Shown here: positions 1 to 32,170 of the stretch, in pieces
Position numbering within the stretch: the stretch's first letter is position 1
Layout of the letters: each line of letters begins with the position of its first letter
DNA from: Brachionus manjavacas
Lineage: Eukaryota; Rotifera; Eurotatoria; Ploima; Brachionidae
NCBI GenBank assembly: GCA_019054805.1
Contig: JAHQIY010000002.1
Coordinates: 6,882,001 to 6,946,000, forward strand
Length of the DNA: 64,000 nt
Direction: 5' to 3'
The notes under the pieces: generated by a model
What the model was told of the DNA's origin: nothing
The model's input: only the letters and a program-made list of their open reading frames with translations
Database searches by the model: none
Position numbers and translations under genes: made by a program

Positions 1-173
1 AAGTTTAGTTAACTTAATGTAAAATTTAAATTGCCCATTCTAAGAATTGCTGTAAGCATTAGTATTTAATTTACTCATTATAAATTCTAGTCTTAAATTT
101 TATTTAAATTATATTTTATTATTTAGAAACACATGCTGAAAGGTAAAATAATAAAAAATAAACTTGTTTAAAA

Positions 174-9844: not shown

Positions 9845-10128
9845 TTTTGAATAAAACTCTGAATTACATTGCTAACTTAATATTTTTTCATTTCAACTGA
9901 CCTGAAATTTTTTTGAATTAGACCAAATTTGGCCTAAAAAATGAAGTTTTTCGATCTATAATTATATGTCTACTTGAATTGTATTTTTTGAGAAAACTAT
10001 AAATATGATTTTTTTTTTCTTCTATATAATGAGTTTAAGTGAGACAGGTAAAAACATAATTTTAAATGCTTAATAAAATTTTATTCATCAAACAAAATTA
10101 ATGCTAAAATAAATAAAAAGTAGATTTG

Positions 10129-11860: not shown

Positions 11861-12204
11861 TATATTCTTTGGTTGTAGATTTTTATTAAAATTGTTTAAA
11901 ATTGAAATGAAAAAATTTAAATGTAAAAAAATTTTGCTATATCAAAAAATCTGTTCAGTAAAATGTTGCAGAATAAAAAACATGAGATTAAAAGAAAAAG
12001 AAATTTAACAATAAGAATTCAAATTTGAAATTATTTTTCTTTGATTATGGACTAGATAAATCAATAAATTTGTTAAATCTTGAAATTTAATTTTCTCTAA
12101 TTAGAAAAGCAATACATAGAAATTTTAAAGATAATTGTAATTTTCTGTTTTTCGTTCAGTATTAAATAAGGTAAATGAATATTTTTGAAAAATTTTTAAA
12201 TCTT
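11861..12204. other. spacer left of the array, nothing recognised
   Basis: AT-rich sequence between the third AGTRAP-like gene and the first array unit. The first unit begins near 12205 with TTAAAGTATAAATTTTAG, which recurs at each direct-unit junction. Confidence 0.5.
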
Positions 12205-12385
12205 TTTTTAAAGTATAAATTTTAGTTTATGTACGTTAAAAGACACAGTTTTGTCTTGGAAAAAAATAAAAAAATTATCTAAAAAAAATTAGGATTTATT
12301 TAAACAGTTAAAATCAACAATTTTTAAAGTTTTCTCCCAGATTTATTAAATAAAATTAAAAAACTAAATAAATAAATATTCAATT

Positions 12386-12481
12386 TCAATACCAAACAGT
12401 TGAATAATATGTGGGAAATGATACAATTGGTCTATAAACTGGCACTAATGGAACAACTGGAGTAACATAACTGTAATACAT
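12386..12481 (-). CDS. type A micropeptide, left-facing (unit 1)
   Basis: 31 codons plus stop. The peptide begins MYYSYVTPVVP and ends FPTYYSTVWY, with LVPVYRPIV between. It has no acidic residue or lysine, one arginine, no signal peptide and no cysteine. A TATAAATA box sits 91 bp upstream of the ATG (12565-12572). On the - strand an AATAAA lies downstream near 12342-12347. The sequence recurs in every unit that retains this region. No known family is recognised; coding status rests on conservation, paired arrangement and promoter spacing. Confidence 0.55.
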   Translation of the reverse strand: MYYSYVTPVVPLVPVYRPIVSFPTYYSTVWY

Positions 12482-12564
12482 CTTCCGTTTTTTTAAATTG
12501 GTTGACTTTATTTAAGATTTTATTTCCCTAATTTTTTTAATGAAAAAATGTCTTAAAAAACAAA

Positions 12565-12572
12565 TATTTATA
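12565..12572 (-). promoter_or_regulatory. TATA box of left-facing type A gene
   Basis: TATAAATA on the - strand, 91 bp before the ATG at 12481. The same motif or a close variant lies 85-91 bp before each of the four micropeptide ORFs of unit 1. Confidence 0.5.
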
Positions 12573-12907
12573 CGAAATATTATTTATTAAAATTTAAACA
12601 TTTACGTATATTGAAAATTATAATTGAAACACAATTTATTTCTTTGTTATCCAACATTCTAATGTTTAAAAAATATTTCCCAAAAGTATTGATACGAATT
12701 AAATTAAACATTCAAAGATTTTAACTCAAAATCTAGCATTGTTTTCATTTAATGTTTATTTCAAGTCGATTATGAAATTTTTTTTTATCTATTTGTCAAG
12801 TCAAATGAATATTGCTCATTTTTTTCTAGGGTAAAATATTTCAGGTATTCAATACATTTGTTTATTTAAAATCTAAATGTTTTAGCCAAATTCAAAAATT
12901 ACCAGAC

Positions 12908-12915
12908 TATATATT
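12908..12915 (+). promoter_or_regulatory. TATA-like box of right-facing type A gene
   Basis: TATATATT, 86 bp before the ATG at 12994. In direct units 2 and 3 it reads TATGTATT; in the inverted copies the TATATA form is kept. Confidence 0.45.
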
Positions 12916-12993
12916 TGAGAATATTTTTAAACGTTTCCTAAAGCAAAATTTAAAAGCACAAAATTAAAAAGACCTAAACATAACAAAAACAAA

Positions 12994-13089
12994 ATGTATT
13001 ACAGCTATGTTTCTCCAGTTGTTCCGGTACTACCTGTTTATAGACCAATTGTAGCTGTTCCCACATATTATTCTGCTGTTTGGTATTAA
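12994..13089 (+). CDS. type A micropeptide, right-facing (unit 1)
   Basis: 31 codons plus stop. The peptide begins MYYSYVSPVVP and ends VPTYYSAVWY, with VLPVYRPIV between. It is a clear paralogue of the left-facing ORF at 12386-12481: same length, same start and end, conservative changes between. The two ATGs face away from each other across 512 bp. An AATAAA-containing tract follows about 75 bp after the stop. The pair is flanked by direct repeats of AAAGTTTT(T)CTCCCAGA at 12326-12341 and 13133-13149. Confidence 0.55.
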   Translation: MYYSYVSPVVPVLPVYRPIVAVPTYYSAVWY

Positions 13090-13667
13090 AACAAAGAATC
13101 GAAGCAATTTTTTTAATTGAGCACATTTTTTGAAAGTTTTTCTCCCAGAATTCAATTTTTTCAAATAAAAAAAAAATTAATTTTAATAATTTTTTTAAAG
13201 ATATTTAATAACAGAGTTGATTTATTTCATTTTCAGTGAAATTTAATGTTCGCTGATATCAATATCACAATTAAAGAAATACAAAATATTTAGTATTTTT
13301 TAAGCCTTGGCTCTACTCTTTTACTTTTTAGAAAAGAAGAAAAAGAATGACTCAGTCTTACATATCTACGAACTCTAACATACATGTTCTAATTATCAAA
13401 ATCATTCTACCAAATTTCTAATTACTCTTTTTTAGTCAGTTTTGAAAACTGATTTTTGTTGAAACATAATGAAATGCAATTGATTAAATTAAAAAATATT
13501 TCTTAAAATTATGTGATTAATTTTTTATCCTCATCTTCGTTAATAAATCACTTATTTTAACATTTAGAGATCGATTTTTGTCAGCCTTGTATAATATGCG
13601 ATAACTGATACCAATAAATGAATAATATTAATTATGGATAAATTAACGATTTTCGCTATCGTTTTCT

Positions 13668-13708
13668 TATCGATAGAATTAACCAATTATGTGGTGACTT
13701 TATCGATA
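13668..13708. promoter_or_regulatory. paired TATCGATA palindromes (DREF/GATA-like cluster)
   Basis: Two perfect TATCGATA octamers at 13668-13675 and 13701-13708, 33 bp apart (about three helical turns), with further GATA words just upstream (GCGATAACTGATA near 13600). About 30 bp downstream is TATTTAAATA and then a 12-codon ORF (see findings). TATCGATA is the DRE core bound by DREF in insects. The cluster is kept in the other units that contain this region. Confidence 0.4.
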
Positions 13709-14098
13709 AGGCAAAATCGGTATTTAAATATGCTTTATATCAAATAAAAGAAAGTTTTGCCAACAAAGAATTTTTATTCCAAATTTTTACTAATTTGAAA
13801 AAGCGAATCAAATAAAAGAAATGAAATCATTTTTCCTTCTTTTAAAAATAATTAAATAGACGTTTTACATGACAAATGACTGGGGAATTTTTTTTTAAAC
13901 CAGACACATTTTTTTGAGAAAAGAAACACAAATAAAGACAATTTTTGACTAATTTATCTTTTGGTCGCTTCTATTTGATGAAATAAGAGCGCTTTCCAAA
14001 AAACAGGAGTGTGATTATTTATCAGATCAAAAAATATTACATTGGCATATTTTTTTCAATATTGAAATGAACATAAAATCTTTAAAAGATTAAATCAC

Positions 14099-14104
14099 TT
14101 TATT
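14099..14104 (-). terminator. AATAAA polyadenylation signal of left-facing type B gene
   Basis: AATAAA on the - strand, about 125 bp after the stop codon of the ORF at 14227-14292. It is mirrored in the right arm at 14932-14937. Confidence 0.4.
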
Positions 14105-14226
14105 TGTAAAAAGGAGAAACAATGGCCCTTTTCTCTCCTTGATTGACATTTAAAAAACAATAAATAAAATCAAATAATCAATAAAAATGATTCAGTAAAT
14201 CATTTGTTCAACGGTTCAATTGTTTT

Positions 14227-14292
14227 TCAGTACCATCTTCCATAATAATATGATGCATATGAATAGTATGGCATGCCGTAGTAAAAGTACAT
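14227..14292 (-). CDS. type B micropeptide, left-facing (unit 1)
   Basis: 21 codons plus stop. The peptide begins MYFYYGMP and ends YYYGRWY, with YYSYAS between. More than half the residues are aromatic. It shares with type A the M-Y-(Y/F) start, a lone arginine and a terminal WY. TATAAATA lies 85 bp upstream (14370-14377, - strand). The ORF is identical at every base to its partner at 14734-14799. No known family is recognised. Confidence 0.5.
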   Translation of the reverse strand: MYFYYGMPYYSYASYYYGRWY

Positions 14293-14369
14293 TTTGATTT
14301 GTTAGTCTTGCTGTTTAGAAAGAGTTTTTTCTTTATTTTTTGTTGTTGAAATGTTTGAAAAATATCTCT

Positions 14370-14377
14370 TATTTATA
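14370..14377 (-). promoter_or_regulatory. TATA box of left-facing type B gene
   Basis: TATAAATA on the - strand, 85 bp before the ATG at 14292, at the loop edge of the left arm. Confidence 0.5.
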
Positions 14378-14646
14378 GGAAATGAAACTTAAATGTTAAC
14401 TATCGATTTAATTAAGAAATTATCACATTTGATGATTCACCGATATTTAAAGTCAAACGAAATTAAAAAGGAATGCAAAATATCATGTCAAACTTCATTT
14501 AATTTAAATTTTGTATTTATATGTTGAAAAATCGGATGAATGTGAACAATTTTTCTCTGGAAAATATTTTCATTACATCAATTAAACGATTATAAAAAAA
14601 AAAATTTTATCAAAATATTTAATTAAAGAGCTTTTATATTTTTATT

Positions 14647-14654
14647 TATAAATA
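14647..14654 (+). promoter_or_regulatory. TATA box of right-facing type B gene
   Basis: TATAAATA, 87 bp before the ATG at 14734, at the loop edge of the right arm. Confidence 0.5.
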
Positions 14655-14733
14655 AGAGACATTTTTCAAACATTTCAACAACAAAAAAAATAAAGAAAAA
14701 ACACTTTCTAAACAGCAAGACTTACAAATCAAA

Positions 14734-14799
14734 ATGTACTTTTACTACGGCATGCCATACTATTCATATGCATCATATTATTATGGAAGATGGTACTGA
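14734..14799 (+). CDS. type B micropeptide, right-facing (unit 1)
   Basis: Same 21-codon ORF as 14227-14292, in opposite orientation on the other arm of the inverted repeat. The start codons are 442 bp apart and face outward, so the loop region would serve as a shared bidirectional promoter. Confidence 0.5.
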   Translation: MYFYYGMPYYSYASYYYGRWY

Positions 14800-14931
14800 A
14801 AAACAATTGAACCGTTGAACAAATGATTTACTGAATCATTTTTATGGATTATTTGATTTTATTTATTGTTTTTTAAATGTCAATCAAGGAGAGAAAAGGG
14901 CCATTGTTTCTCCTTTTTACAAATAAAGTTG

Positions 14932-14937
14932 TTTAAT
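14932..14937 (+). terminator. AATAAA polyadenylation signal of right-facing type B gene
   Basis: AATAAA about 135 bp after the stop at 14797-14799, just after a GGAGA...TCTCC short hairpin. Confidence 0.4.
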
Positions 14938-15611
14938 CTTTTAAAGAAATTATGTTCATTTCAATTTGGCAAATATAAAATGGCGTGCCTGACTTAATTT
15001 AATTATTTTAAACATTTTAGAAATAAAATAGAAAATATTAACGAAATGTCTTTAGAATGATTCAACACTAGCATATTATATTTACATGTTTATGTTAAAT
15101 TTAATTATTAAAAATTAACATTTAAAATAAAGATTCTGATTTTATAATTTAGTTTGAAAATATTTTCTTTTTATTATCTGAATTTTAGAAAAATGAATTT
15201 TGAGATAGTTTAGAAAAACTTTGGAATTAGAACGAGCACTAACTAATTACTAATGCTCCGGAGTATAAATTACCCTTTTTTTTACTTCTTTGGCTTATTA
15301 CTCAATAGATTGAACTTTTTATCCATTTTTTCCATAGAATCGAATCTAAAAATTTTTAATTAAATATTATAATTTATTACCAAATATTTGTTTTTTCATG
15401 CTAAAAGGGTTTTCGTTATTATTACACGTATATTTAAGATTATAAAAAAATGTTTAATATTACTTTCTTCAAATATTAAACAAGCTAGACAACATATGAA
15501 CAAAATTTAGTTGAAAAAACTTCAAAAAATAAAATGTATTGTATTAATTCTTAAATGATCAACAAGTAATTAATGAATCAATCTAAGCTTTAAAAAAGTC
15601 AAATAATGAAA

Positions 15612-16570
15612 TAACGAAAGACCCGACAGAGATATCAAATCTTCTAAAAAGATTTTTTAAAAAATGTTTTGTAATTGAACAAGATTGAAGGCTTCCACCT
15701 TTTGAAGCTGAATTTAAAGAAAACTGGTCAGAATATATTGATATTTTACCAAATGATATTTGCTATGAAATGGTTTCTTAAAAAACTACAAATGCTAAAT
15801 CAAAATAAATCATGTGGTTTAGACAATCTTTATCCGTCATTACTTAAAAACTGTGCAGAAGACTAAACTTTCATTTAACTTAGATTTTACAGATCAGCAA
15901 ATATTAGTCCATTGTTAAAAAAGGTAAAAAATCAATTCATTGTGAAAATTAATAAATTGTGAAAAAATTTCACAATAGAAAAAAATTAAAGCGTGTGTAA
16001 TGTAATTTTTGTGCTAATATCTGACATTGCTAGATTCTTTTTATAAATTTTATTATCTTCCTTAAACTCTAAAGAACAGCATAAATTTTGTAAGGAAAAA
16101 GTAATTTACAACTAATCTTCTGGAAACTCTAGATTTAGTCTCAATGAGTCTAGACAAATTTTCCTGTTAATGTGATTTTAATAGATTTTGCAAAAGCATT
16201 TGATACTAATCTGCACAGACCACACACAGCTTAAAAGAAACAAATGAATTTATTGGTCTGGCACTAAAATGGATCGAAGCTTTTTGAAAAAAGAAGAAAA
16301 CGAGATGTTCATGGTAAAATTGTGTCGGAATTGATAAGAAATTTTTGGCGTTGTACCACAAGGATAAGTGATTAATCCACTTTTGTTCGTTTTCTATATT
16401 AATGATCTCCCAAAAGGAAAAAAGAATATGGTGAAGATGTTTGCAGATGCTATAAAATTTTCTCGCAAACGGTATCAGAAATAAGTGCAGTGAAACTACA
16501 ATCAGATTTAGATTTAGTTTTCAAGTGGAATCTAGATTGGCTTCTTCTCTTCAAGTCCAAGACGGCCTGT
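15612..16570 (+). pseudogene. dead non-LTR (LINE) reverse-transcriptase fragment, unit 1
   Basis: Broken frames show the order of motifs of a LINE reverse transcriptase: DPTEISNLLKRFFKK; QNKSCGLDNLYPSLLKN (typical KSPGPDGI-type block); YRSANISPLLKKGKK; LIDFAKAFDT; then VVPQG, a stop, and NPLLFVFYINDLPKG; and MVKMFADAIKF. The catalytic F/YADD box reads FADA, so a metal-binding aspartate is lost. Several stops and frame shifts separate the motifs. The same lesions occur in the other copies (20091-21049, 25000-25958, 28510-29470). The element was already dead when the array was amplified. Confidence 0.75.
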
Positions 16571-16862
16571 TGACGTAATCTATCTTTATTTTGACAATTA
16601 CACACGAATTACTTTTATTAAATTACACACAAAGATCTGATAGTAAAATAAATTGCAATGGGATTCCAAATACAAATCATTTTTTTAAAGTATAAATTTT
16701 AGTTTATGTACGTTAAAAGACACAGTTTTGTCTTGGAAAAAAATAAAAAAATTATCTAAAAAAATTTAGGATTTATTTAAACAGTTAAAATCAACAATTT
16801 TTAAAGTTTTCTCCCAGATTTATTAAATAAAATTAAAAAACTAAATAAATAAATATTCAATT

Positions 16863-16958
16863 TCAATACCAAACAGTTGAATAATATGTGGGAAATGATA
16901 CAATTGGTCTATAAACTGGCACTAATGGAACAACTGGAGTAACATAACTGTAATACAT
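16863..16958 (-). CDS. type A micropeptide, left-facing (unit 2)
   Basis: Same 31-residue peptide as 12386-12481 (MYYSYVTPVVP... ending TYYSTVWY). Confidence 0.5.
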   Translation of the reverse strand: MYYSYVTPVVPLVPVYRPIVSFPTYYSTVWY

Positions 16959-17469
16959 CTTCCGTTTTTTTAAATTGGTTGACTTTATTTAAGATTTTAT
17001 TTCCCTAATTTTTTTAATGAAAAAATGTCTTAAAAAACAAATATTTATACGAAATATTATTTATTAAAATTTAAACATTTACGTATATTGAAAATTATAA
17101 TTGAAACACAATTTATTTCTTTGTTATCCAACATTCTAATGTTTAAAAATATTTTCCAAAAGTATTGATACGAATTAAATTAAACATTCAAAGATTTTAA
17201 CTCAAAATCTAGCATTGTTTTCATTTAATGTTTATTTCAAGTCGATTATGAAATTTTTTTTTATCTATTTGTCAAGTCAAATGAATATTGCTCATTTTTT
17301 TCTAGGGTAAAATATTTCAGGTATTCAATACATTTGTTTATTTAAAATCCAAATGTTTTAGCCAAATTCAAAAATTACCAGACTATGTATTTGAGAATAT
17401 TTTTAAAAGTTTCCTAAAGCAAAATTTAAAAGCACAAAATTAAAAAGACCTAAACATAACAAAAACAAA

Positions 17470-17565
17470 ATGTATTACAGCTATGTTTCTCCAGTTGTTC
17501 CGATACTACCTGTTTATAGACAAATTGTAGCTGTTCCCACATATTATTCTGCTGTTTGGTATTAA
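17470..17565 (+). CDS. type A micropeptide, right-facing (unit 2)
   Basis: 31 residues. It differs from unit 1 (12994-13089) at two positions: VPVLPV becomes VPILPV and YRPIV becomes YRQIV. Confidence 0.5.
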   Translation: MYYSYVSPVVPILPVYRQIVAVPTYYSAVWY

Positions 17566-18702
17566 AACAAAGAATCGAAGCAATTTTTTTAATTGAGCAC
17601 ATTTTTTGAAAGTTTTTCTCCCAGAATTCAATTTTTTCAAATAAAAAAAAAAATTAATTTTAATAATTTTTTTAAAGATATTTAATAACAGAGTTGATTT
17701 ATTTCATTTTCAGTGAAATTTAATGTTCGCTGATATCAATATCACAATTAAAGAAATACAAAATATTTAGTATTTTTAAGCCTTGGCTCTACTCTTTTAC
17801 TTTTTAGAAAAGAAGAAAAAGAATGACTCAGTCTTACATATCTACGAACTCTAACATACATGTTCTAATTATCAAAATCATTCTACCAAATTTCTAATTA
17901 CTCTTTTTTAGTCAGTTTTGAAAACTGATTTTTGTTGAAACATAATGAAATGCAATTGATTAAATTAAAAAATATTTCTTAAAATTATGTGATTAATTTT
18001 TTATCCTCATCTTCGTTAATAAATCACTTATTTTAACATTTAGAGATCGATTTTTGTCAGCCTTGTATAATATGCGATAACTGATACCAATAAATGAATA
18101 ATATTAATTATGGATAAATTAACGATTTTCGCTATCGTTTTCTTATCGATAGAATTAACCAATTATGTGGTGACTTTATCGATAAGGCAAAATCGGTATT
18201 TAAATATGCTTTATATCAAATAAAAGAAAGTTTTGCCAACAAAGAATTTTTATTCCAAATTTTTACTAATTTGAAAAAGCGAATCAAATAAAAGAAATGA
18301 AATCATTTTTCCTTCTTTTAAAAATAATTAAATAGACGTTTTACATGACAAATGACTGGGGAATTTTTTTAAACCAGACACATTTTTTTGAGAAAAGAAA
18401 CACAAATAAAGACAATTTTTGACTAATTTATCTTTTTGGTCGCTTCTATTTGATGAAATAAGAGCGCTTTCCAAAAAACAGGAGTGTGATTATTTATCAG
18501 ATCAAAAAAATATTACATTGGCATATTTTTTTCAATATTGAAATGAACATAAAATCTTTAAAAGATTAAATCACTTTATTTGTAAAAAGGAGAAACAATG
18601 GCCCTTTTCTCTCCTTGATTGACATTTAAAAAACAATAAATAAAATCAAATAATCAATAAAAATGATTCAGTAAATCATTTGTTCAACGGTTCAATTGTT
18701 TT

Positions 18703-18768
18703 TCAGTACCATCTTCCATAATAATATGATGCATATGAATAGTATGGCATGCCGTAGTAAAAGTACAT
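18703..18768 (-). CDS. type B micropeptide, left-facing (unit 2)
   Basis: 21 codons, base-for-base identical to the unit 1 ORFs. Confidence 0.48.
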   Translation of the reverse strand: MYFYYGMPYYSYASYYYGRWY

Positions 18769-19209
18769 TTTGATTTGTTAGTCTTGCTGTTTAGAAAGAG
18801 TTTTTTCTTTATTTTTTTTGTTGTTGAAATGTTTGAAAAATATCTCTTATTTATAGGAAATGAAACTTAAATGTTAACTATCGATTTAATTAAGAAATTA
18901 TCACATTTGATGATTCACCGATATTCAAAGTCAAACGAAATTAAAAAGGAATGCAAAATATCATGTCAAACTTCATTTAATTTAAATTTTGTATTTATAT
19001 GTTGAAAAATCGGATGAATGTGAACAATTTTTCTCTGGAAAATATTTTCATTACATCAATTAAACGATTATAAAAAAAAAATTTTATCAAAATTTTTAAT
19101 TAAAGAGCTTTTATATTTTTATTTATAAATAAGAGACATTTTTCAAACATTTCAACAACAAAAAAAATAAAGAAAAACACTTTCTAAACAGCAAGACTTA
19201 CAAATCAAA

Positions 19210-19275
19210 ATGTACTTTTACTACGGCATGCCATACTATTCATATGCATCATATTATTATGGAAGATGGTACTGA
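19210..19275 (+). CDS. type B micropeptide, right-facing (unit 2)
   Basis: 21 codons, base-for-base identical to the unit 1 ORFs. Confidence 0.48.
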   Translation: MYFYYGMPYYSYASYYYGRWY

Positions 19276-20090
19276 AAAACAATTGAACCGTTGAACAAAT
19301 GATTTACTGAATCATTTTTATTGATTATTTGATTTTATTTATTGTTTTTTAAATGTCAATCAAGGAGAGAAAAGGGCCATTGTTTCTCCTTTTTTACAAA
19401 TAAAGTTGTTTAATCTTTTAAAGAAATTATGTTCATTTCAATTTGGCAAATATAAAATGGCGTGCCTGACTTAATTTAATTATTTTAAACATTTTAGAAA
19501 TAAAATAGAAAATATTAACGAAATGTCTTTAGAATGATTCAACACTAGCATATTATATTTACATGTTTATGTTAAATTTAATTATTAAAAATTAACATTT
19601 AAAATAAAGATTCTGATTTTATAATTTAGTTTGAAAATATTTTCTTTTTATTATCTGAATTTTAGAAAAATGAATTTTGAGATAGTTTAGAAAAACTTTG
19701 GAATTAGAACGAGCACTAACTAATTACTAATGCTCCGGAGTATAAATTACCCTTTTTTTTACTTCTTTGGCTTATTACTCAATAGATTGAACTTTTTATC
19801 CATTTTTTTTCCATAGAATCGAATCTAAAAATTTTTAATTAAATATTATAATTTATTACCAAATATTTGTTTTTTCATGCTAAAAGGGTTTTCGTTATTA
19901 TTACACGTATATTTAAGATTATAAAAAAATGTTTAATATTACTTTCTTCAAATATTAAACAAGCTAGACAACATATGAACAAAATTTAGTTGAAAAAACT
20001 TCAAAAAATAAAATGTATTGTATTAATTCTTAAATGATCAACAAGTAATTAATGAATCAATCTAAGCTTTAAAAAAGTCAAATAATGAAA

Positions 20091-21049
20091 TAACGAAAGA
20101 CCCGACAGAGATATCAAATCTTCTAAAAAGATTTTTTTAAAATGTTTTGTAATTGAACAAGATTGAAGGCTTCCACCTTTTGAAGCTGAATTTAAAGAAA
20201 ACTGGTCAGAATATATTGATATTTTACCAAATGATATTTGCTATGAAATGGTTTCTTAAAAAACTACAAATGCTAAATCAAAATAAATCATGTGGTTTAG
20301 ACAATCTTTATCCGTCATTACTTAAAAACTGTGCAGAAGACTAAACTTTCATTTAACTTAGATTTTACAGATCAGCAAATATTAGTCCATTGTTAAAAAA
20401 AGGTAAAAAATCAATTCATTGTGAAAATTAATAAATTGTGAAAAAATTTCACAATAGAAAAAAATTAAAGCGTGTGTAATGTAATTTTTGTGCTAATATC
20501 TGACATTGCTAGATTCTTTTTATAAATTTTATTATCTTCCTTAAACTCTAAAGAACAGCATAAATTTTGTAAGGAAAAAGTAATTTACAACTAATCTTCT
20601 GGAAACTCTAGATTTAGTCTCAATGAGTCTAGACAAATTTTCCTGTTAATGTGATTTTAATAGATTTTGCAAAAGCATTTGATACTAATCTGCACAGACC
20701 ACACACAGCTTAAAAGAAACAAATGAATTTATTGGTCTGGCACTAAAATGGATCGAAGCTTTTTGAAAAAAGAAGAAAACGAGATGTTCATGGTAAAATT
20801 GTGTCGGAATTGATAAGAAATTTTTGGCGTTGTACCACAAGGATAAGTGATTAATCCACTTTTGTTCGTTTTCTATATTAATGATCTCCCAAAAGGAAAA
20901 AAGAATATGGTGAAGATGTTTGCAGATGCTATAAAATTTTCTCGCAAACGGTATCAGAAATAAGTGCAGTGAAACTACAATCAGATTTAGATTTAGTTTT
21001 CAAGTGGAATCTAGATTGGCTTCTTCTCTTCAAGTCCAAGACGGCCTGT
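20091..21049 (+). pseudogene. dead LINE reverse-transcriptase fragment, unit 2
   Basis: Same stops, frame shifts and FADA box as the copy at 15612-16570. Confidence 0.72.
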
Positions 21050-21341
21050 TGACGTAATCTATCTTTATTTTGACAATTACACACGAATTACTTTTATTAA
21101 ATTACACACAAAGATCTGATAGTAAAATAAATTGCAATGGGATTCCAAATACAAATCATTTTTTTAAAGTATAAATTTTAGTTTATGTACGTTAAAAGAC
21201 ACAGTTTTGTCTTGGAAAAAAATAAAAAAATTATCTAAAAAAAATTAGGATTTATTTAAACAGTTAAAATCAACAATTTTTAAAGTTTTCTCCCAGATTT
21301 ATTAAATAAAATTAAAAAACTAAATAAATAAATATTCAATT

Positions 21342-21437
21342 TCAATACCAAACAGTTGAATAATATGTGGGAAATGATACAATTGGTCTATAAACTGGCA
21401 CAAATGGAACAACTGGAGTAACATAACTGTAATACAT
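21342..21437 (-). CDS. type A micropeptide, left-facing (unit 3)
   Basis: 31 residues. One change from unit 1: PVVPLVP becomes PVVPFVP. Confidence 0.5.
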   Translation of the reverse strand: MYYSYVTPVVPFVPVYRPIVSFPTYYSTVWY

Positions 21438-21950
21438 CTTCCGTTTTTTTAAATTGGTTGACTTTATTTAAGATTTTATTTCCCTAATTTTTTTAATGAA
21501 AAAATGTCTTAAAAAAACAAATATTTATACGAAATATTATTTATTAAAATTTAAACATTTACGTATATTGAAAATTATAATTGAAACACAATTTATTTCT
21601 TTGTTATCCAACATTCTAATGTTTAAAAAATATTTTCCAAAAGTATTGATACGAATTAAATTAAACATTCAAAGATTTTAACTCAAAATCTAGCATTGTT
21701 TTCATTTAATGTTTATTTCAAGTCGATTATGAAATTTTTTTTTATCTATTTGTCAAGTCAAATGAATATTGCTCATTTTTTTCTAGGGTAAAATATTTCA
21801 GGTATTCAATACATTTGTTTATTTAAAATCCAAATGTTTTAGCCAAATTCAAAAATTACCAGACTATGTATTTGAGAATATTTTTAAACGTTTCCTAAAG
21901 CAAAATTTAAAAGCACAAAATTAAAAAGACCTAAACATAACAAAAACAAA

Positions 21951-22046
21951 ATGTATTACAGCTATGTTTCTCCAGTTGTTCCGATACTACCTGTTTATAG
22001 ACAAATTGTAGCTGTTCCCACATATTATTCTGCTGTTTGGTATTAA
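21951..22046 (+). CDS. type A micropeptide, right-facing (unit 3)
   Basis: 31 residues, the VPILPV / YRQIV variant as in unit 2. Confidence 0.5.
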   Translation: MYYSYVSPVVPILPVYRQIVAVPTYYSAVWY

Positions 22047-23181
22047 AACAAAGAATCGAAGCAATTTTTTAATTGAGCACATTTTTTGAAAGTTTTTCTC
22101 CCAGAATTCAATTTTTTCAAATAAAAAAAAAAATTAATTTTAATAATTTTTTTAAAGATATTTAATAACAGAGTTGATTTATTTCATTTTCAGTGAAATT
22201 TAATGTTCGCTGATATCAATATCACAATTAAAGAAATACAAAATATTTAGTATTTTTAAGCCTTGGCTCTACTCTTTTACTTTTTAGAAAAGAAGAAAAA
22301 GAATGACTCAGTCTTACATATCTACGAACTCTAACATACATGTTCTAATTATCAAAATCATTCTACCAAATTTCTAATTACTCTTTTTTAGTCAGTTTTG
22401 AAAACTGATTTTTGTTGAAACATAATGAAATGCAATTGATTAAATTAAAAAATATTTCTTAAAATTATGTGATTAATTTTTTATCCTCATCTTCGTTAAT
22501 AAATCACTTATTTTAACATTTAGAGATCGATTTTTGTCAGCCTTGTATAATATGCGATAACTGATACCAATAAATGAATAATATTAATTATGGATAAATT
22601 AACGATTTTCGCTATCGTTTCCTTATCGATAGAATTAACCAATTATGTGGTGACTTTATCGATAAGGCAAAATCGGTATTTAAATATGCTTTATATCAAA
22701 TAAAAGAAAGTTTTGCCAACAAAGAATTTTTATTCCAAATTTTTACTAATTTGAAAAAGCGAATCAAATAAAAGAAATGAAATCATTTTTCCTTCTTTTA
22801 AAAATAATTAAATAGACGTTTTACATGACAAATGACTGGGGAATTTTTTTAAACCAGACACATTTTTTTGAGAAAAGAAACACAAATAAAGACAATTTTT
22901 GACTAATTTATCTTTTTGGTCGCTTCTATTTGATGAAATAAGAGCGCTTTCCAAAAAACAGGAGTGTGATTATTTATCAGATCAAAAAAATATTACATTG
23001 GCATATTTTTTTCAATATTGAAATGAACATAAAATCTTTAAAAGATTAAACAACTTTATTTGTAAAAAGGAGAAACAATGGCCCTTTTCTCTCCTTGATT
23101 GACATTTAAAAAAAATAAATAAAATCAAATAATCAATAAAAATGATTCAGTAAATCATTTGTTCAACGGTTCAATTGTTTT

Positions 23182-23247
23182 TCAGTACCATCTTCCATAA
23201 TAATATGATGCATATGAATAGTATGGCATGCCGTAGTAAAAGTACAT
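23182..23247 (-). CDS. type B micropeptide, left-facing (unit 3)
   Basis: 21 codons, identical to the other type B ORFs. Its right-facing partner is removed by the internal deletion, and so is most of its own upstream region beyond about 60 bp, including the TATA box. Confidence 0.42.
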   Translation of the reverse strand: MYFYYGMPYYSYASYYYGRWY

Positions 23248-24002
23248 TTTGATTTGTTAGTCTTGCTGTTTAGAAAGAGTTTTTTCTTTATTTTTTTTGT
23301 TGTTGTTTAATCTTTTAAAGAAATTATGTTCATTTCAATTTGGCAAATAAAAAAATGGCGTGCCTGACTTAATTTAATTATTTTAAACATTTTAGAAATA
23401 AAATAGAAAGTATAAACGAATATGTCTTAAGAATGATTCAACACTAGCATTTTATATTTACATGTACATGTTTATGTTTATGTATCAGTTATCGCATATT
23501 ATACAAGGCTGACAAAAATCGATCTCTAAATGTTAAAATAAGTGATTTATTAACGAAGATGAGGATAAAAAATTAATCACATAATTTTAAGAAAAATTTT
23601 TTAATTTAATCAATTGCATTTCATTATGTTTCAACAAAAATCAGTTTTCAAAACTGACTAAAAAAGAGTAATTAGAAATTTGGTAGAATGATTTTGATAA
23701 TTAGAACATGTATGTTAGAGTTCGTAGATATGTAAGACTGAGTCATTCTTTTTCTTCTTTTCTAAAAAGTAAAAGAGTAGAGCCAAGGCTTAAAAATACT
23801 AAATATTTTGTATTTCTTTAATTGTGATATTGATATCAGCGAACATTAAATTTCACTGAAAATGAAATAAATCAACTCTGTTATTAAATATCTTTAAAAA
23901 AATTATTAAAATTAATTTTTTTTTTATTTGAAAAAATTGAATTCTGGGAGAAAAACTTTCAAAAAATGTGCTCAATTAAAAAAATTGCTTCGATTCTTTG
24001 TT

Positions 24003-24098
24003 TTAATACCAAACAGCAGGATAATATGTGGGAACAGCTACAATTTGTCTATAAACAGGTAGTATCGGAACAACTGGAGAAACATAGCTGTAATACAT
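24003..24098 (-). CDS. type A micropeptide, SAV-type, inverted unit I
   Basis: Counterpart of the right-facing type A ORF, here on -. VPILPV / YRQIV variant with a further change near the end (TYYPAVWY instead of TYYSAVWY), shared with the other inverted copies. Confidence 0.5.
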   Translation of the reverse strand: MYYSYVSPVVPILPVYRQIVAVPTYYPAVWY

Positions 24099-24610
24099 TT
24101 TGTTTTTGTTATGTTTAGGTCTTTTTAATTTTGTGCTTTTAAATTTTGCTTTAGGAAACGTTTAAAAATATTCTCAAATATATAGTCTGGTAATTTTTGA
24201 ATTTGGCTAAAACATTTAGATTTTAAATAAACAAATGTATTGAATACCTGAAATATTTTACCCTAGAAAAAAATGAGCAATATTCATTTGACTTGACAAA
24301 TAGATAAAAAAAAATTTCATAATCGACTTGAAATAAACATTAAATGAAAACAATGCTAGATTTTGAGTTAAAATCTTTGAATGTTTAATTTAATTCGTAT
24401 CAATACTTTTGGGAAATATTTTTTAAACATTTGAATGTTGGATAACAAAGAAATAAATTGTGTTTCAATTATAATTTTCAATATACGTAAATGTTTAAAT
24501 TTTAATAAATAATATTTCGTATAAATATTTGTTTTTTTAAGACATTTTTTCATTAAAAAAATTAGGGAAATAAAATCTTAAATAAAGTCAACCAATTTAA
24601 AAAACGGAAG

Positions 24611-24706
24611 ATGTATTACAGTTATGTTACTCCAGTTGTTCCATTAGTGCCAGTTTATAGACCAATTGTATCATTTCCCACATATTATTCAACTGTTTGG
24701 TATTGA
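24611..24706 (+). CDS. type A micropeptide, STV-type, inverted unit I
   Basis: Counterpart of the left-facing type A ORF, here on +, with PVVPLVP and TYYSTVWY. Confidence 0.5.
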   Translation: MYYSYVTPVVPLVPVYRPIVSFPTYYSTVWY

Positions 24707-24999
24707 AATTGAATATTTATTTATTTAGTTTTTTAATTTTATTTAATAAATCTGGGAGAAAACTTTAAAAATTGTTGATTTTAACTGTTTAAATAAATCC
24801 TAATTTTTTTTAGAAAATTTTTTTATTTTTTCCAAGACAAAACTGTGTCTTTTAACGTACATAAACTAAAATTTATACTTTAAAAATGATTTGTATTTGG
24901 AATCCCATTGCAATTTATTTTACTATCAGATCTTTGTGTGTAATTTAATAAAAGTAATTCGTGTGTAATTGTCAAAATAAAGATAGATTACGTCAACAG

Positions 25000-25958
25000 G
25001 CCGTCTTGGACTTGAAGAGAAGAAGCCAATCTAGATTCCACTTGAAAACTAAATCTAAATCTGATTGTAGTTTCACTGCACTTATTTCTGATACCGTTTG
25101 CGAGAAAATTTTATAGCATCTGCAAACATCTTCACCATATTCTTTTTTCCTTTTGGGAGATCATTAATATAGAAAACGAACAAAAGTGGATTAATCACTT
25201 ATCCTTGTGGTACAACGCCAAAAATTTCTTATCAATTCCGACACAATTTTACCATGAACATCTCGTTTTCTTCTTTTTTTCAAAAAGCTTCGATCCATTT
25301 TAGTGCCAGACCAATAAATTCATTTGTTTCTTTTAAGCTGTGTGTGGTCTGTGCAGATTAGTATCAAATGCTTTTGCAAAATCTATTAAAATCACATTAA
25401 CAGGAAAATTTGTCTAGACTCATTGAGACTAAATCTAGAGTTTCCAGAAGATTAGTTGTAAATTACTTTTTCCTTACAAAATTTATGCTGTTCTTTAGAG
25501 TTTAAGGAAGATAATAAAATTTATAAAAAGAATCTAGCAATGTCAGATATTAGCACAAAAATTACATTACACACGCTTTAATTTTTTTCTATTGTGAAAT
25601 TTTTTCACAATTTATTAATTTTCACAATGAATTGATTTTTTACCTTTTTTTAACAATGGACTAATATTTGCTGATCTGTAAAATCTAAGTTAAATGAAAG
25701 TTTAGTCTTCTGCACAGTTTTTAAGTAATGACGGATAAAGATTGTCTAAACCACATGATTTATTTTGATTTAGCATTTGTAGTTTTTTAAGAAACCATTT
25801 CATAGCAAATATCATTTGGTAAAATATCAATATATTCTGACCAGTTTTCTTTAAATTCAGCTTCAAAAAGGTGGAAGCCTTCAATCTTGTTCAATTACAA
25901 AACATTTTTTAAAAAATCTTTTTAGAAGATTTGATATCTCTGTCGGGTCTTTCGTTAT
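25000..25958 (-). pseudogene. dead LINE reverse-transcriptase fragment, inverted unit I
   Basis: Reverse-complement copy of the relic at 15612-16570, with the same inactivating lesions. Confidence 0.72.
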
Positions 25959-26337
25959 TTCATTATTTGACTTTTTAAAGCTTAGATTGATTCATTAATT
26001 ACTTGTTGATCATTTAAGAATAAATACAATACATTTTATTTTTTGAAGTTTTTTCAACTAAATTTTGTTCATATGTTGTCTAGCTTGTTTAATATTTGAA
26101 GAAAGTAATATTAAACATTATTTTATAATCTTAAATATACGTGTAATAATAACGAAAACCCTTTTAGCATGAAAAAACAAATATTTGGTAATAAATTATA
26201 ATATTTAATTAAAAATTTTTAGATTCGATTCTATGGAAAAAAATGGATAAAAAGTTCAATCTATTGAGTAATAAGCCAAAGAAGTAATAAAAAGGGTAAT
26301 TTATATTCCGGAGCATAAGTAATTAGTTAGTGCTCGT

Positions 26338-26376
26338 TATTCATATGCATCATATTATTATGGAAGATGGTACTGA
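26338..26376 (+). pseudogene. truncated type B micropeptide ORF, inverted unit I
   Basis: Only the last 12 codons and stop remain (YSYAS...YYYGRWY). The ATG, leader and TATA box were lost in the unit deletion. Confidence 0.7.
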
Positions 26377-27513
26377 AAAACAATTGAACCGTTGAACAAA
26401 TGATTTACTGAATCATTTTTATTGATTATTTGATTTTATTTATTTTTTTTTAAATGTCAATCAAGGAGAGAAAAGGGCCATTGTTTCTCCTTTTTACAAA
26501 TAAAGTTGTTTAATCTTTTAAAGATTTTATGTTCATTTCAATATTGAAAAAAATATGCCAATGTAATATTTTTTTGATCTGATAAATAATCACACTCCTG
26601 TTTTTTGGAAAGCGCTCTTATTTCATCAAATAGAAGCGACCAAAAAGATAAATTAGTCAAAAATTGTCTTTATTTGTGTTTCTTTTCTCAAAAAAATGTG
26701 TCTGGTTTAAAAAAATTCCCCAGTCATTTGTCATGTAAAACGTCTATTTAATTATTTTTAAAAGAAGGAAAAATGATTTCATTTCTTTTATTTGATTCGC
26801 TTTTTCAAATTAGTAAAAATTTGGAATAAAAATTCTTTGTTGGCAAAACTTTCTTTTATTTGATATAAAGCATATTTAAATACCGATTTTGCCTTATCGA
26901 TAAAGTCACCACATAATTGGTTAATTCTATCGATAAGGAAACGATAGCGAAAATCGTTAATTTATCCATAATTAATATTATTCATTTATTGGTATCAGTT
27001 ATCGCATATTATACAAGGCTGACAAAAATCGATCTCTAAATGTTAAAATAAGTGATTTATTAACGAAGATGAGGATAAAAAATTAATCACATAATTTTAA
27101 GAAAAATTTTTTAATTTAATCAATTGCATTTCATTATGTTTCAACAAAAATCAGTTTTCAAAACTGACTAAAAAAGAGTAATTAGAAATTTGGTAGAATG
27201 ATTTTGATAATTAGAACATGTATGTTAGAGTTCGTAGATATGTAAGACTGAGTCATTCTTTTTCTTCTTTTCTAAAAAGTAAAAGAGTAGAGCCAAGGCT
27301 TAAAAATACTAAATATTTTGTATTTCTTTAATTGTGATATTGATATCAGCGAACATTAAATTTCACTGAAAATGAAATAAATCAACTCTGTTATTAAATA
27401 TCTTTAAAAAAATTATTAAAATTAATTTTTTTTTTTATTTGAAAAAATTGAATTCTGGGAGAAAAACTTTCAAAAAATGTGCTCAATTAAAAAAATTGCT
27501 TCGATTCTTTGTT

Positions 27514-27609
27514 TTAATACCAAACAGCAGGATAATATGTGGGAACAGCTACAATTTGTCTATAAACAGGTAGTATCGGAACAACTGGAGAAACATAGCT
27601 GTAATACAT
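27514..27609 (-). CDS. type A micropeptide, SAV-type, inverted unit II
   Basis: 31 residues, same variant as 24003-24098 (TYYPAVWY). Confidence 0.5.
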   Translation of the reverse strand: MYYSYVSPVVPILPVYRQIVAVPTYYPAVWY

Positions 27610-28120
27610 TTTGTTTTTGTTATGTTTAGGTCTTTTTAATTTTGTGCTTTTAAATTTTGCTTTAGGAAACGTTTAAAAATATTCTCAAATATATAGTCTG
27701 GTAATTTTTGAATTTGGCTAAAACATTTAGATTTTAAATAAACAAATGTATTGAATACCTGAAATATTTTACCCTAGAAAAAATGAGCAATATTCATTTG
27801 ACTTGACAAATAGATAAAAAAAAATTTCATAATCGACTTGAAATAAACATTAAATGAAAACAATGCTAGATTTTGAGTTAAAATCTTTGAATGTTTAATT
27901 TAATTCGTATCAATACTTTTGGAAAATATTTTTTAAACATTAGAATGTTGGATAACAAAGAAATAAATTGTGTTTCAATTATAATTTTCAATATACGTAA
28001 ATGTTTAAATTTTAATAAATAATATTTCGTATAAATATTTGTTTTTTTAAGACATTTTTTTCATTAAAAAAATTAGGAAATAAAATCTTAAATAAAGTCA
28101 ACCAATTTAAAAAACGGAAG

Positions 28121-28216
28121 ATGTATTACAGTTATGTTACTCCAGTTGTTCCATTAGTGCCAGTTTATAGACCAATTGTATCATTTCCCACATATTATTC
28201 AACTGTTTGGTATTGA
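28121..28216 (+). CDS. type A micropeptide, STV-type, inverted unit II
   Basis: 31 residues, same peptide as 24611-24706. Confidence 0.5.
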   Translation: MYYSYVTPVVPLVPVYRPIVSFPTYYSTVWY

Positions 28217-28509
28217 AATTGAATATTTATTTATTTAGTTTTTTAATTTTATTTAATAAATCTGGGAGAAAACTTTAAAAATTGTTGATTTTAACTGTTT
28301 AAATAAATCCTAATTTTTTTTAGAAAATTTTTTTATTTTTTTCCAAGACAAAACTGTGTCTTTTAACGTACATAAACTAAAATTTATACTTTAAAAAAAT
28401 GATTTGTATTTGGAATCCCATTGCAATTTATTTTACTATCAGATCTTTGTGTGTAATTTAATAAAAGTAATTCGTGTGTAATTGTCAAAATAAAGATAGA
28501 TTACGTCAA

Positions 28510-29470
28510 CAGGCCGTCTTGGACTTGAAGAGAAGAAGCCAATCTAGATTCCACTTGAAAACTAAATCTAAATCTGATTGTAGTTTCACTGCACTTATTT
28601 CTGATACCGTTTGCGAGAAAATTTTATAGCATCTGCAAACATCTTCACCATATTCTTTTTTCCTTTTGGGAGATCATTAATATAGAAAACGAACAAAAGT
28701 GGATTAATCACTTATCCTTGTGGTACAACGCCAAAAATTTCTTATCAATTCCGACACAATTTTACCATGAACATCTCGTTTTCTTCTTTTTTTCAAAAAG
28801 CTTCGATCCATTTTAGTGCCAGACCAATAAATTCATTTGTTTCTTTTAAGCTGTGTGTGGTCTGTGCAGATTAGTATCAAATGCTTTTGCAAAATCTATT
28901 AAAATCACATTAACAGGAAAATTTGTCTAGACTCATTGAGACTAAATCTAGAGTTTCCAGAAGATTAGTTGTAAATTACTTTTTCCTTACAAAATTTATG
29001 CTGTTCTTTAGAGTTTAAGGAAGATAATAAAATTTATAAAAAGAATCTAGCAATGTCAGATATTAGCACAAAAATTACATTACACACGCTTTAATTTTTT
29101 TCTATTGTGAAATTTTTTCACAATTTATTAATTTTCACAATGAATTGATTTTTTACCTTTTTTTAACAATGGACTAATATTTGCTGATCTGTAAAATCTA
29201 AGTTAAATGAAAGTTTAGTCTTCTGCACAGTTTTTAAGTAATGACGGATAAAGATTGTCTAAACCACATGATTTATTTTGATTTAGCATTTGTAGTTTTT
29301 TAAGAAACCATTTCATAGCAAATATCATTTGGTAAAATATCAATATATTCTGACCAGTTTTCTTTAAATTCAGCTTCAAAAGGTGGAAGCCTTCAATCTT
29401 GTTCAATTACAAAACATTTTTTAAAAAATCTTTTTAGAAGATTTGATATCTCTGTCGGGTCTTTCGTTAT
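28510..29470 (-). pseudogene. dead LINE reverse-transcriptase fragment, inverted unit II
   Basis: Fourth copy of the relic, with the same lesions. Confidence 0.72.
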
Positions 29471-29850
29471 TTCATTATTTGACTTTTTTAAAGCTTAGAT
29501 TGATTCATTAATTACTTGTTGATCATTTAAGAATAAATACAATACATTTTATTTTTTGAAGTTTTTTCAACTAAATTTTGTTCATATGTTGTCTAGCTTG
29601 TTTAATATTTGAAGAAAGTAATATTAAACATTATTTTATAATCTTAAATATACGTGTAATAATAACGAAAACCCTTTTAGCATGAAAAAACAAATATTTG
29701 GTAATAAATTATAATATTTAATTAAAAATTTTTAGATTCGATTCTATGGAAAAAAATGGATAAAAAGTTCAATCTATTGAGTAATAAGCCAAAGAAGTAA
29801 TAAAAAGGGTAATTTATATTCCGGAGCATAAGTAATTAGTTAGTGCTCGT

Positions 29851-29889
29851 TATTCATATGCATCATATTATTATGGAAGATGGTACTGA
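29851..29889 (+). pseudogene. truncated type B micropeptide ORF, inverted unit II
   Basis: Same truncated remnant as 26338-26376. Confidence 0.7.
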
Positions 29890-30507
29890 AAAACAATTGA
29901 ACCGTTGAACAAATGATTTACTGAATCATTTTTATTGATTATTTGATTTTATTTATTTTTTTTAAATGTCAATCAAGGAGAGAAAAGGGCCATTGTTTCT
30001 CCTTTTTACAAATAAAGTTGTTTAATCTTTTAAAGATTTTATGTTCATTTCAATATTGAAAAAAATATGCCAATGTAATATTTTTTTGATCTGATAAATA
30101 ATCACACTCCTGTTTTTTGGAAAGCGCTCTTATTTCATCAAATAGAAGCGACCAAAAAGATAAATTAGTCAAAAATTGTCTTTATTTGTGTTTCTTTTCT
30201 CAAAAAAATGTGTCTGGTTTAAAAAAAAATTCCCCAGTCATTTGTCATGTAAAACGTCTATTTAATTATTTTTAAAAGAAGGAAAAATGATTTCATTTCT
30301 TTTATTTGATTCGCTTTTTCAAATTAGTAAAAATTTGGAATAAAAATTCTTTGTTGGCAAAACTTTCTTTTATTTGATATAAAGCATATTTAAATACCGA
30401 TTTTGCCTTATCGATAAAGTCACCACATAATTGGTTAATTCTATCGATAAGGAAACGATAGCGAAAATCGTTAATTTATCCATAATTAATATTATTCATT
30501 TATTGGT

Positions 30508-31604
30508 ATCAGTTATCGCATATTATACAAGGCTGACAAAAATCGATCTCTAAATGTTAAAATAAGTGATTTATTAACGAAGATGAGGATAAAAAATTAA
30601 TCACATAATTTTAAGAAAAATTTTTTAATTTAATCAATTGCATTTCATTATGTTTCAACAAAAATCAGTTTTCAAAACTGACTAAAAAAGAGTAATTAGA
30701 AATTTGGTAGAATGATTTTGATAATTAGAACATGTATGTTAGAGTTCGTAGATATGTAAGACTGAGTCATTCTTTTTCTTCTTTTCTAAAAAGTAAAAGA
30801 GTAGAGCCAAGGCTTAAAAATACTAAATATTTTGTATTTCTTTAATTGTGATATTGATATCAGCGAACATTAAATTTCACTGAAAATGAAATAAATCAAC
30901 TCTGTTATTAAATATCTTTAAAAAAATTATTAAAATTAATTTTTTTTTTTATTTGAAAAAATTGAATTCTGGGAGAAAAACTTTCAAAAAATGTGCTCAA
31001 TTAAAAAAATTGCTTCGATTCTTTGTTTTAATACCAAACAGCAGGATAATATGTGGGAACAGCTACAATTTGTCTATAAACAGGTAGTATCGGAACAACT
31101 GGAGAAACATAGCTGTAATACATTTTGTTTTTGTTATGTTTAGGTCTTTTTAATTTTGTGCTTTTAAATTTTGCTTTAGGAAACGTTTAAAAATATTCTC
31201 AAATATATAGTCTGGTAATTTTTGAATTTGGCTAAAACATTTAGATTTTAAATAAACAAATGTATTGAATACCTGAAATATTTTACCCTAGAAAAAAATG
31301 AGCAATATTCATTTGACTTGACAAATAGATAAAAAAATTTCATAATCGACTTGAAATAAACATTAAATGAAAACAATGCTAGATTTTGAGTTAAAATCTT
31401 TGAATGTTTAATTTAATTCGTATCAATACTTTTGGAAAATATTTTTTAAACATTAGAATGTTGGATAACAAAGAAATAAATTGTGTTTCAATTATAATTT
31501 TCAATATACGTAAATGTTTAAATTTTATAAATAATATTTCGTATAAATATTTGTTTTTTTTAAGACATTTTTTCATTAAAAAAATTAGGGAAATAAAATC
31601 TTAA
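30508..31604 (-). repeat. array unit III (inverted, truncated at right boundary)
   Basis: Runs from the GATAACTGATA element through one type A ORF and stops within the sequence just upstream of the other type A ORF (after AGGGAAATAAAATCTTAAAT). The sequence beyond is not array. Confidence 0.82.
31028..31123 (-). CDS. type A micropeptide, SAV-type, inverted unit III
   Basis: 31 residues, TYYPAVWY variant. The partner ORF is cut off by the array boundary. Confidence 0.48.
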   Translation of the reverse strand: MYYSYVSPVVPILPVYRQIVAVPTYYPAVWY

Positions 31605-32170
31605 ATGTTTTGCTCCTGTTACAGGCTTCTATTCTGATAAAAAATCAACAATTACAACTCTCTTCTTTTATCCCAGTGAAAAAGGCACTTACCTATTCAT
31701 TTAATGTAAAAGGAATCTTATTTGCGATTTGACTATCAGAAATTCGTGTGTAATTATATAAAAGTCTTTGGCAAAATAAAGATAGATAACGTCATCAGAC
31801 TGTCTTCGACTTACACAGTTAGTTAGTCAATCGACTGTTAGGATAAGGTTGGTTCAAATGACTTTTTATTTACAAAACCATGTTACTTCGTCGAAAGAAG
31901 TTTTTTGTTTTTATTTGAATTTTGGCGAAATATTGGCTTACTTCCACTGTCTTGGAAGACTCGACTCTCTTAATGTTTAATGAAACATATATATGTAAAT
32001 GGATCCACAAGAGCATCGGCCATTTTTTTGGGCATGAGTTGCCACTTTATCTTCACCTGTTTTCTTGACACTTTAAATTGCGAAAGTTTATCACGAACTT
32101 TGTTAGCCTCTTTGATTTTAATAGCATGATCAGTCAGTGCTCGATTAGTCTATCAGTTTTTTTTTGTCTT
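31605..32170 (-). pseudogene. degenerate LINE fragment at the right edge of the array
   Basis: The stretch 31720-31820 (ATTCGTGTGTAATTATATAA, AAAATAAAGATAGATAACGT, CAGACTGTCTTCGACTTA) is a diverged copy of the sequence following the LINE relic inside the array. Further right, on -, broken frames read MPKKMADALVDPFTYIC and then VEVSQYFAKIQ. This resembles the LINE reverse-transcriptase block with IADPLTHIFN and WKIAKVSPIFK. Stops and shifts abound. It is an older member of the same or a related element. Confidence 0.5.

What the first reader, a model, noticed from the sequence alone, without database searches (positions are those of the whole stretch)
12386..31123. Undescribed family of 31- and 21-residue aromatic micropeptides in an amplified array
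Seen: eleven type A ORFs of exactly 32 codons and five intact type B ORFs of exactly 22 codons, with shared peptide grammar: M-Y-(Y/F) start, one arginine, terminal W-Y, no acidic residue, lysine or cysteine, and no signal peptide. Type A has a PVVP...PV core with tyrosine-rich ends; type B is mostly tyrosine, glycine and other aromatics. I recognise no family with this pattern. ORFs this small are skipped by standard gene finders, so a real multicopy gene family could be missing from annotations. Candidate roles (adhesive or shell material, self-assembling peptide, selfish element product) are speculation.
Basis: partly seen in the sequence, partly recalled or inferred. Interest (0 to 1): 0.9.

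Follow-up and report, generated by a model that had tools for sequence, protein, structure and literature searches.

The report
Tyrosine-rich micropeptide gene family in rotifers
A rotifer genome carries a family of tiny genes, most of them amplified in one array, that encode 21- to 37-residue tyrosine-rich peptides; the longer type shows selection on its protein sequence and also occurs in a second rotifer species, and it may be a building material inside cells.

Summary
In detail: 11 intact 31-aa type A and 5 intact 21-aa type B ORFs. The genome is that of a Brachionus rotifer. Type A is very probably a protein-coding family. Two more members (34 and 37 aa) form a head-to-head pair 306 kb to the left and differ in length by whole 9-nt steps. 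Between the loci the frame is kept with dN/dS 0.12-0.27. B. plicatilis has array-like (MYYS) and second-locus-like (MYYR) forms in four hypothetical, partial, extended or misjoined protein entries. Promoters pair across the two loci, so the head-to-head pair is older than the duplication. Against: recent changes among array copies show no constraint. Type B is weaker: five identical copies, no relative found. No expression data were available. Function is inferred: no signal-like core, aromatic, uncharged apart from arginine, multicopy; [quoted passage not shown] 'Selfish element' and 'non-coding' are rejected for type A.

The parts
12386..12481 (-). type A gene (A-minus lineage), 31 aa
12994..13089 (+). 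type A gene (A-plus lineage), 31 aa; head-to-head with 12386-
16863..16958 (-). type A (A-minus), 31 aa
17470..17565 (+). type A (A-plus), 31 aa
21342..21437 (-). type A (A-minus), 31 aa
21951..22046 (+). type A (A-plus), 31 aa
24003..24098 (-). type A (A-plus lineage, inverted unit), 31 aa
24611..24706 (+). type A (A-minus lineage, inverted unit), 31 aa
27514..27609 (-). type A (A-plus lineage, inverted unit), 31 aa
28121..28216 (+). type A (A-minus lineage, inverted unit), 31 aa
31028..31123 (-). type A (A-plus lineage, last inverted unit; its A-minus partner is cut off by the array end)
14227..14292 (-). type B gene, 21 aa
14734..14799 (+). type B gene, 21 aa; head-to-head with 14227-
18703..18768 (-). 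type B gene, 21 aa
19210..19275 (+). type B gene, 21 aa
23182..23247 (-). type B gene, 21 aa
26338..26376 (+). 3' remnant of type B (last 12 codons and stop), 5' part deleted
   Evidence: sequence; DNA match
29851..29889 (+). 3' remnant of type B, 5' part deleted
   Evidence: sequence; DNA match
12565..12572 (-). TATAAATA, 91 nt before the ATG of 12386-
12908..12915 (+). TATATATT, 86 nt before the ATG of 12994+
14370..14377 (-). TATAAATA, 85 nt before the ATG of 14227-
14647..14654 (+). TATAAATA, 87 nt before the ATG of 14734+
12203..31606 (.). the amplified array: three direct units (about 4.48 kb), then inverted units (about 3.51 kb); ends approximate

Best explanation
SUPPORTED BY THE CALLS: type A is a protein-coding family of single-ORF micropeptides of Brachionus rotifers, built on an old head-to-head gene pair; one pair was copied in an array together with a second, type B micropeptide ORF. 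INFERRED: each gene is a short TATA-driven transcript (TATA about 88 nt and start point about 55-60 nt before the ATG, AATAAA 39-123 nt after the stop), and the array raises output. The peptides have no signal-like core, no K, D, E or C, aromatic ends (MYY...WY) and either a PVVP core (type A) or nearly half tyrosine (type B). I think they are made in bulk and stay inside the cell, where they self-assemble by aromatic stacking and possibly dityrosine links into a matrix: a keratin-associated-protein-like filler. The best candidate site is the intracytoplasmic lamina (lorica) of the rotifer's syncytial skin, together with cytoplasmic intermediate filaments. My confidence: type A coding 0.95, type B coding 0.75, structural material 0.5, site in the lamina 0.25. 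The overall figure is for coding family plus structural role.
For: Own-genome search: 13 type A matches, 13 of 13 without a stop, though 11 are young copies. dN/dS between array and second locus 0.12-0.27, and 0.16 within the second-locus pair. A-plus against second-locus minus: 5 amino acid changes from 15 base changes, simulated mean 10.1, P 0.0015; 11 of 15 at third positions, P 0.0004. Length changes are whole 9-nt steps. Four B. plicatilis entries match the profile (E 5e-10 to 3e-5, 903 candidates) and include MYYS and MYYR forms. The first 29 residues of BpHYR1_045195 resemble the antisense of type A genes (scores 52-59; best of 500 shuffles 41-49), so two genes probably stand head to head there too. 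Promoters: A-minus with second-locus plus z 53, A-plus with second-locus minus z 58, cross pairs within type A z 1.4-2.9. A TATA-like box at -85 to -91 in five of six promoters. Y 18-23% in A, 48% in B. A cytoplasmic-type filament protein exists: one of two checked has a filament rod and no lamin tail match. Short peptides with Tyr pairs at both ends can assemble and cross-link (passages of PMC6382316).
Against: No transcript, peptide or localisation evidence. Inside the array constraint is not seen: 4 of 192 CDS columns changed, all four changing the amino acid, against 15 of 1,146 non-coding columns; absence of CDS indels is not significant (0 seen, about 1.7 expected, P 0.19). The pairwise tests share branches; A-minus against A-plus is not significant (P 0.076, third positions P 0.17) and the second-locus pair is marginal (0.046, 0.093). 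TATA-like matches are frequent here (2 to 7 per 160 nt upstream), the second-locus minus gene has only TATTTATT at -76, and no chance test of the placement was run. Three of the four B. plicatilis entries lack the WY end as annotated. Type B has no divergent relative. No glycine in A and no cysteine in A or B, unlike keratin-associated proteins. The filament gene 29 kb right of the window has a lamin tail, so its nearness is no support.
Confidence: 0.48

Rival explanations
1. Extracellular structural or adhesive material (toe cement, egg shell, trophi), released without a classical signal peptide or by gland cell lysis.
For: Tyrosine-rich composition and a multicopy array suit adhesives and shells.
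Against: No hydrophobic signal core: best 9-residue Kyte-Doolittle mean 1.6-2.3 in A, in stretches that hold prolines, and about 0 in B. No signal-peptide predictor was available.
Confidence: 0.2
2. A regulatory or signalling micropeptide that acts inside the cell at low abundance, for example on a membrane or a protein partner.
For: Both ends of the peptide are kept between loci; small regulatory smORFs are known in animals (recalled).
Against: Bulk-type composition, multicopy array and in-frame change of the core's repeat number are unlike a one-partner ligand; this is a judgement, not a test.
Confidence: 0.17
3. The type A ORF is the last exon of a longer spliced gene; ATGTATTACAG would hold the splice acceptor, as one B. 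plicatilis model seems to have it.
For: BpHYR1_045195 runs into YVTPVV... in place of MYYS, and ATGTATTACAG is the same in 13 of 13 genes.
Against: The first 29 residues of that model resemble the antisense of a type A gene; two other B. plicatilis entries begin at the family's ATG; residues before the ATG are hardly conserved in the four frames aligned; a TATA-like box sits 85-91 nt before the ATG in five of six genes.
Confidence: 0.05
4. Not coding: chance ORFs carried by a repeat or mobile element, or a structured RNA.
For: Units carry a decayed multicopy retroelement piece; ORFs of this size are frequent (94 of 20 aa or more overlap 12000-31500); a 37-aa ORF of the same units is a dispersed repeat; no constraint is seen among recent copies.
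Against: Third-position bias, whole-codon length changes and a second species; no Rfam match; only two loci found genome-wide.
Confidence: 0.05

Closest known systems
[quoted passage not shown]
   Same: Small and tyrosine-rich, genes clustered by duplication, coding sequence in a single exon in mammals; the lamprey case is called independent evolution by its authors (passages of PMC2528016 and PMC12101200). Leaderless: recalled.
   Different: No glycine in type A, no cysteine, only 21-37 aa, V/P-rich core, no link to keratins shown. Gene conversion is frequent in the high-cysteine KRTAPs and rarer in the HGT ones.
Designed tyrosine-rich assembling peptides (YYAYY, YYACAYY)
   Same: Tyrosine pairs at both ends of a short peptide (passages of PMC6382316).
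   Different: Synthetic; not genes; YYACAYY needs its cysteine for sheets, which the rotifer peptides lack.
Hypothetical proteins BpHYR1_045195, _025105, _050624, _011129 of Brachionus plicatilis
   Same: Members of type A by sequence.
   Different: Two are partial, one is extended at its start, one is joined to an antisense stretch; three lack the WY end as annotated; no name or function.

Membership tests
Type A family of Brachionus (as defined here) | MYY[SR]YV start, PVVP core, PVYR, WY end in one open frame | tested here: met
   13 of 13 genes of this genome; of the four B. plicatilis entries only one has the WY end and it lacks MYY as modelled
Type A family of Brachionus (as defined here) | purifying selection on the frame | tested here: met
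   between loci; not seen among recent array copies
Type A family of Brachionus (as defined here) | type B belongs to the same family by descent | tested here: inconclusive
   searches with A or B did not find the other; core promoters of A and B weakly alike, best z 5.5, others 0.5 to 4.4
HGT keratin-associated proteins | homology to mammalian KRTAP | tested here: inconclusive
   no Pfam match, but peptides this short may score below any model; no direct comparison with KRTAP sequences was made
HGT keratin-associated proteins | rich in glycine and tyrosine | tested here: not met
   Y 18-48% is high, but glycine is 0 in type A and 2 of 21 in type B
HGT keratin-associated proteins | binds or embeds intermediate filaments | not testable with these tools
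   filament genes exist in the genome; no binding data
Mobile or selfish element | many dispersed copies | tested here: not met
   two loci only
Known structured RNA | match to an Rfam family | tested here: not met
   0 matches in the whole window at gathering threshold

The most novel reading that the evidence does not exclude
Rotifers build their intracellular skin skeleton with the help of the shortest keratin-associated-like structural proteins known: two interleaved families of leaderless aromatic micropeptides (a V/P-core type and a nearly half-tyrosine type), expressed from head-to-head TATA genes whose copy number sets the amount.
Probability: 0.22. Interest if true: 0.78.

Novelty: new variant of a known kind. 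Interest (0 to 1): 0.6.

Why it matters
A gene family found in two rotifer species is absent or wrongly modelled in the annotation seen, because its products are 21-37 residues. If structural, the peptides would be natural counterparts of designed tyrosine-rich assemblers and give a molecular handle on the rotifer intracytoplasmic lamina, whose make-up is poorly known (recalled).

Tried and rejected
Selfish element: the only other locus found is one pair on the same contig; the repeated piece in the units is a decayed retroelement with many copies elsewhere. The 37-aa ORF MDKLTIF... of the units: 9 matches, 4 outside the array, 3 of those 4 with a stop, so a dispersed repeat. The antisense 50-aa ORF over type A: its frame is open over the CDS in one of four divergent genes. 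A 39-nt DNA match of the type B 3' region on C14: no micropeptide of this kind beside it. Link by nearness to an intermediate-filament gene 29 kb right of the window: it has a lamin tail domain, so dropped. Type B relatives in the protein collection: no candidate shared three 5-residue words with the query, which included codons before the ATG. PDB sequences: no match for one type A peptide. Global-alignment identities of flanks (67-91%) were dropped as evidence where below the random-pair maximum of 84% (mean 72%, sd 6); local scores with shuffles were used instead. Papers: nine searches; the listings were capped (for example 15 of 349 and 10 of 861), I saw no paper on these peptides in them, and no paper holds any of the four B. 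plicatilis locus tags. Structure prediction was not run: the peptides are too short for it to be informative.
Full report
OBSERVATION. The ORF list and the codon listing confirm 11 type A and 5 type B ORFs, all intact, at the coordinates given. The repeat search shows units of about 4.48 kb (three direct) and about 3.51 kb (inverted). Reading the sequence, the first two direct units run A-minus, A-plus, B-minus, B-plus; the third lacks an intact B-plus; the inverted units are about 0.97 kb shorter and keep only a 3' remnant of B at 26338-26376 and 29851-29889; the last one ends before A-minus. So 3+2 pairs plus one single gene make 11.

WHERE IT IS. The window is 64 kb of a 114 Mb, 61-contig assembly. 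A window ORF (32828-34033, minus strand) is 89% identical to a B. plicatilis protein named solute carrier family 35 member G1 and 74% to one of B. calyciflorus, so the source is a Brachionus rotifer; the species is not settled. Window G+C is 25.7%, within the 24.95-31.14% reported for monogonont assemblies (passages of PMC11954553).

MORE MEMBERS. tblastn in the genome gave 13 type A matches with each of three queries, none with a stop inside: the 11 of the array and two on the same contig, 306 kb left of the first array gene (L014 4707-4811 minus and 5275-5388 plus). These are 34 and 37 residues, again head to head, and differ from the array form by whole 9-nt steps in the PVV core. Type B gave only its 5 copies even at E up to 10.

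SELECTION. With the extra codons left out, dN/dS (Nei-Gojobori) is 0.12-0.27 between loci, 0.27-0.36 between A-minus and A-plus, and 0.16 within the second-locus pair. Under random change the number of amino acid differences seen has P 0.0015 for the best pair and 0.012-0.015 for the other three between-locus pairs, 0.046 for the second-locus pair and 0.076 for A-minus against A-plus; third-position P values are 0.0004, 0.0056-0.0084, 0.093 and 0.17 in that order. The pairs share branches and are not independent. Only the named frame is open to its end in all four genes. Against this, inside the array (5 units aligned, the sixth A-plus copy left out) 4 of 192 CDS columns changed, all four changing the amino acid, against 15 of 1,146 non-coding columns; the CDS have no indel and the non-coding columns have 10 indel events, which is not significant (P 0.19). 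So constraint is shown over the older time span, not on the recent copies.

SECOND SPECIES. A profile of four frames found 4 proteins among 903 candidates, all from B. plicatilis. Two start at the family's ATG and are marked partial (one MYYS, one MYYR form), one MYYR form is extended at its start, and one, BpHYR1_045195, joins a type A end to a stretch that resembles the antisense of a type A gene. Three of the four lack the WY end as annotated. Hence both sub-forms, and probably a head-to-head pair, exist there; the split into MYYS and MYYR loci is then probably older than the species split (inference). I had no DNA of that species.

GENE ANATOMY. Upstream regions match in pairs across the two loci (A-minus with second-locus plus, z 53; A-plus with second-locus minus, z 58), and other type A pairs do not (z 1.4-2.9). 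The coding sequences do not follow this: the second-locus genes are closest to each other, 93% in the CDS and 97% in the first 60 nt after it (random 120-nt pairs under the same aligner reach 84%). The plain reading is an old divergent pair whose coding parts are evened out by gene conversion (inference). TATAAATA lies at -91 (A-minus), -90 (second-locus plus), -85 and -87 (type B), TATATATT at -86 (A-plus), and only TATTTATT at -76 in second-locus minus; TATA-like words are common in this AT-rich DNA (2 to 7 per 160 nt) and the placement was not tested against chance. AATAAA lies 39-123 nt after the stop. Type B minus and plus share the CDS exactly and 98-99% of the first 120 nt downstream, a young inverted duplication.

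FUNCTION. Inferred only. Composition, lack of a signal-like core, copy number and the repeat-number change of the core point to a bulk material. Keratin-associated proteins are the nearest working model: small, tyrosine-rich, clustered, and matched by independently evolved proteins in lampreys (passages). They fail as a family assignment on glycine (membership table). A rotifer has a fitting place, the intracytoplasmic lamina of its syncytial skin (passages of PMC13403294, on another monogonont); that this lamina is keratin-like in Brachionus is recalled, not read here. The genome has filament rods: 11 of 13 matches over the family cut-off, two of them adjacent and probably one gene; of two scanned one has no lamin tail match and one is lamin-like.

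VERDICT. A real, undescribed (as far as the nine paper searches show) micropeptide family seen so far only in Brachionus, type A firm and type B likely, with function open and a structural role most likely.

Noticed in passing
window 15438-16554 and the matching stretches of the other units: Four units of the array carry a decayed piece of a multicopy retroelement: 102 matching pieces listed (4 in the array, 98 elsewhere; the longer ones 79-85% identical); only 40 of 352 candidates were scored, so a lower bound.
   Followed up: partly
window 13634-13747 and copies: 37-aa ORF MDKLTIF... in five units is a dispersed repeat; three of four outside matches have a stop.
   Followed up: yes
window 48001-50000: G+C rises to 43% in this 2-kb bin of an otherwise 18-33% window; translated frames there resemble the tail of a retroelement integrase (recalled resemblance).
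   Followed up: no
window 162-1310, 3401-4054, 8585-9871, 38842-39930, 52304-53005: Ordinary genes by Pfam: Gar1/Naf1, probable N6-adenine methyltransferase, TMEM26, actin, inositol monophosphatase family.
   Followed up: partly
L025 2867-4762 (C2, 29 kb right of the window): Intermediate-filament gene with a lamin tail domain; five filament loci were fetched and translated, two of them scanned with Pfam.
   Followed up: partly
L014 1047-1244 and 3047-3430: Reverse-transcriptase-like ORFs (FADD motif, recalled) near the second type A locus.
   Followed up: no
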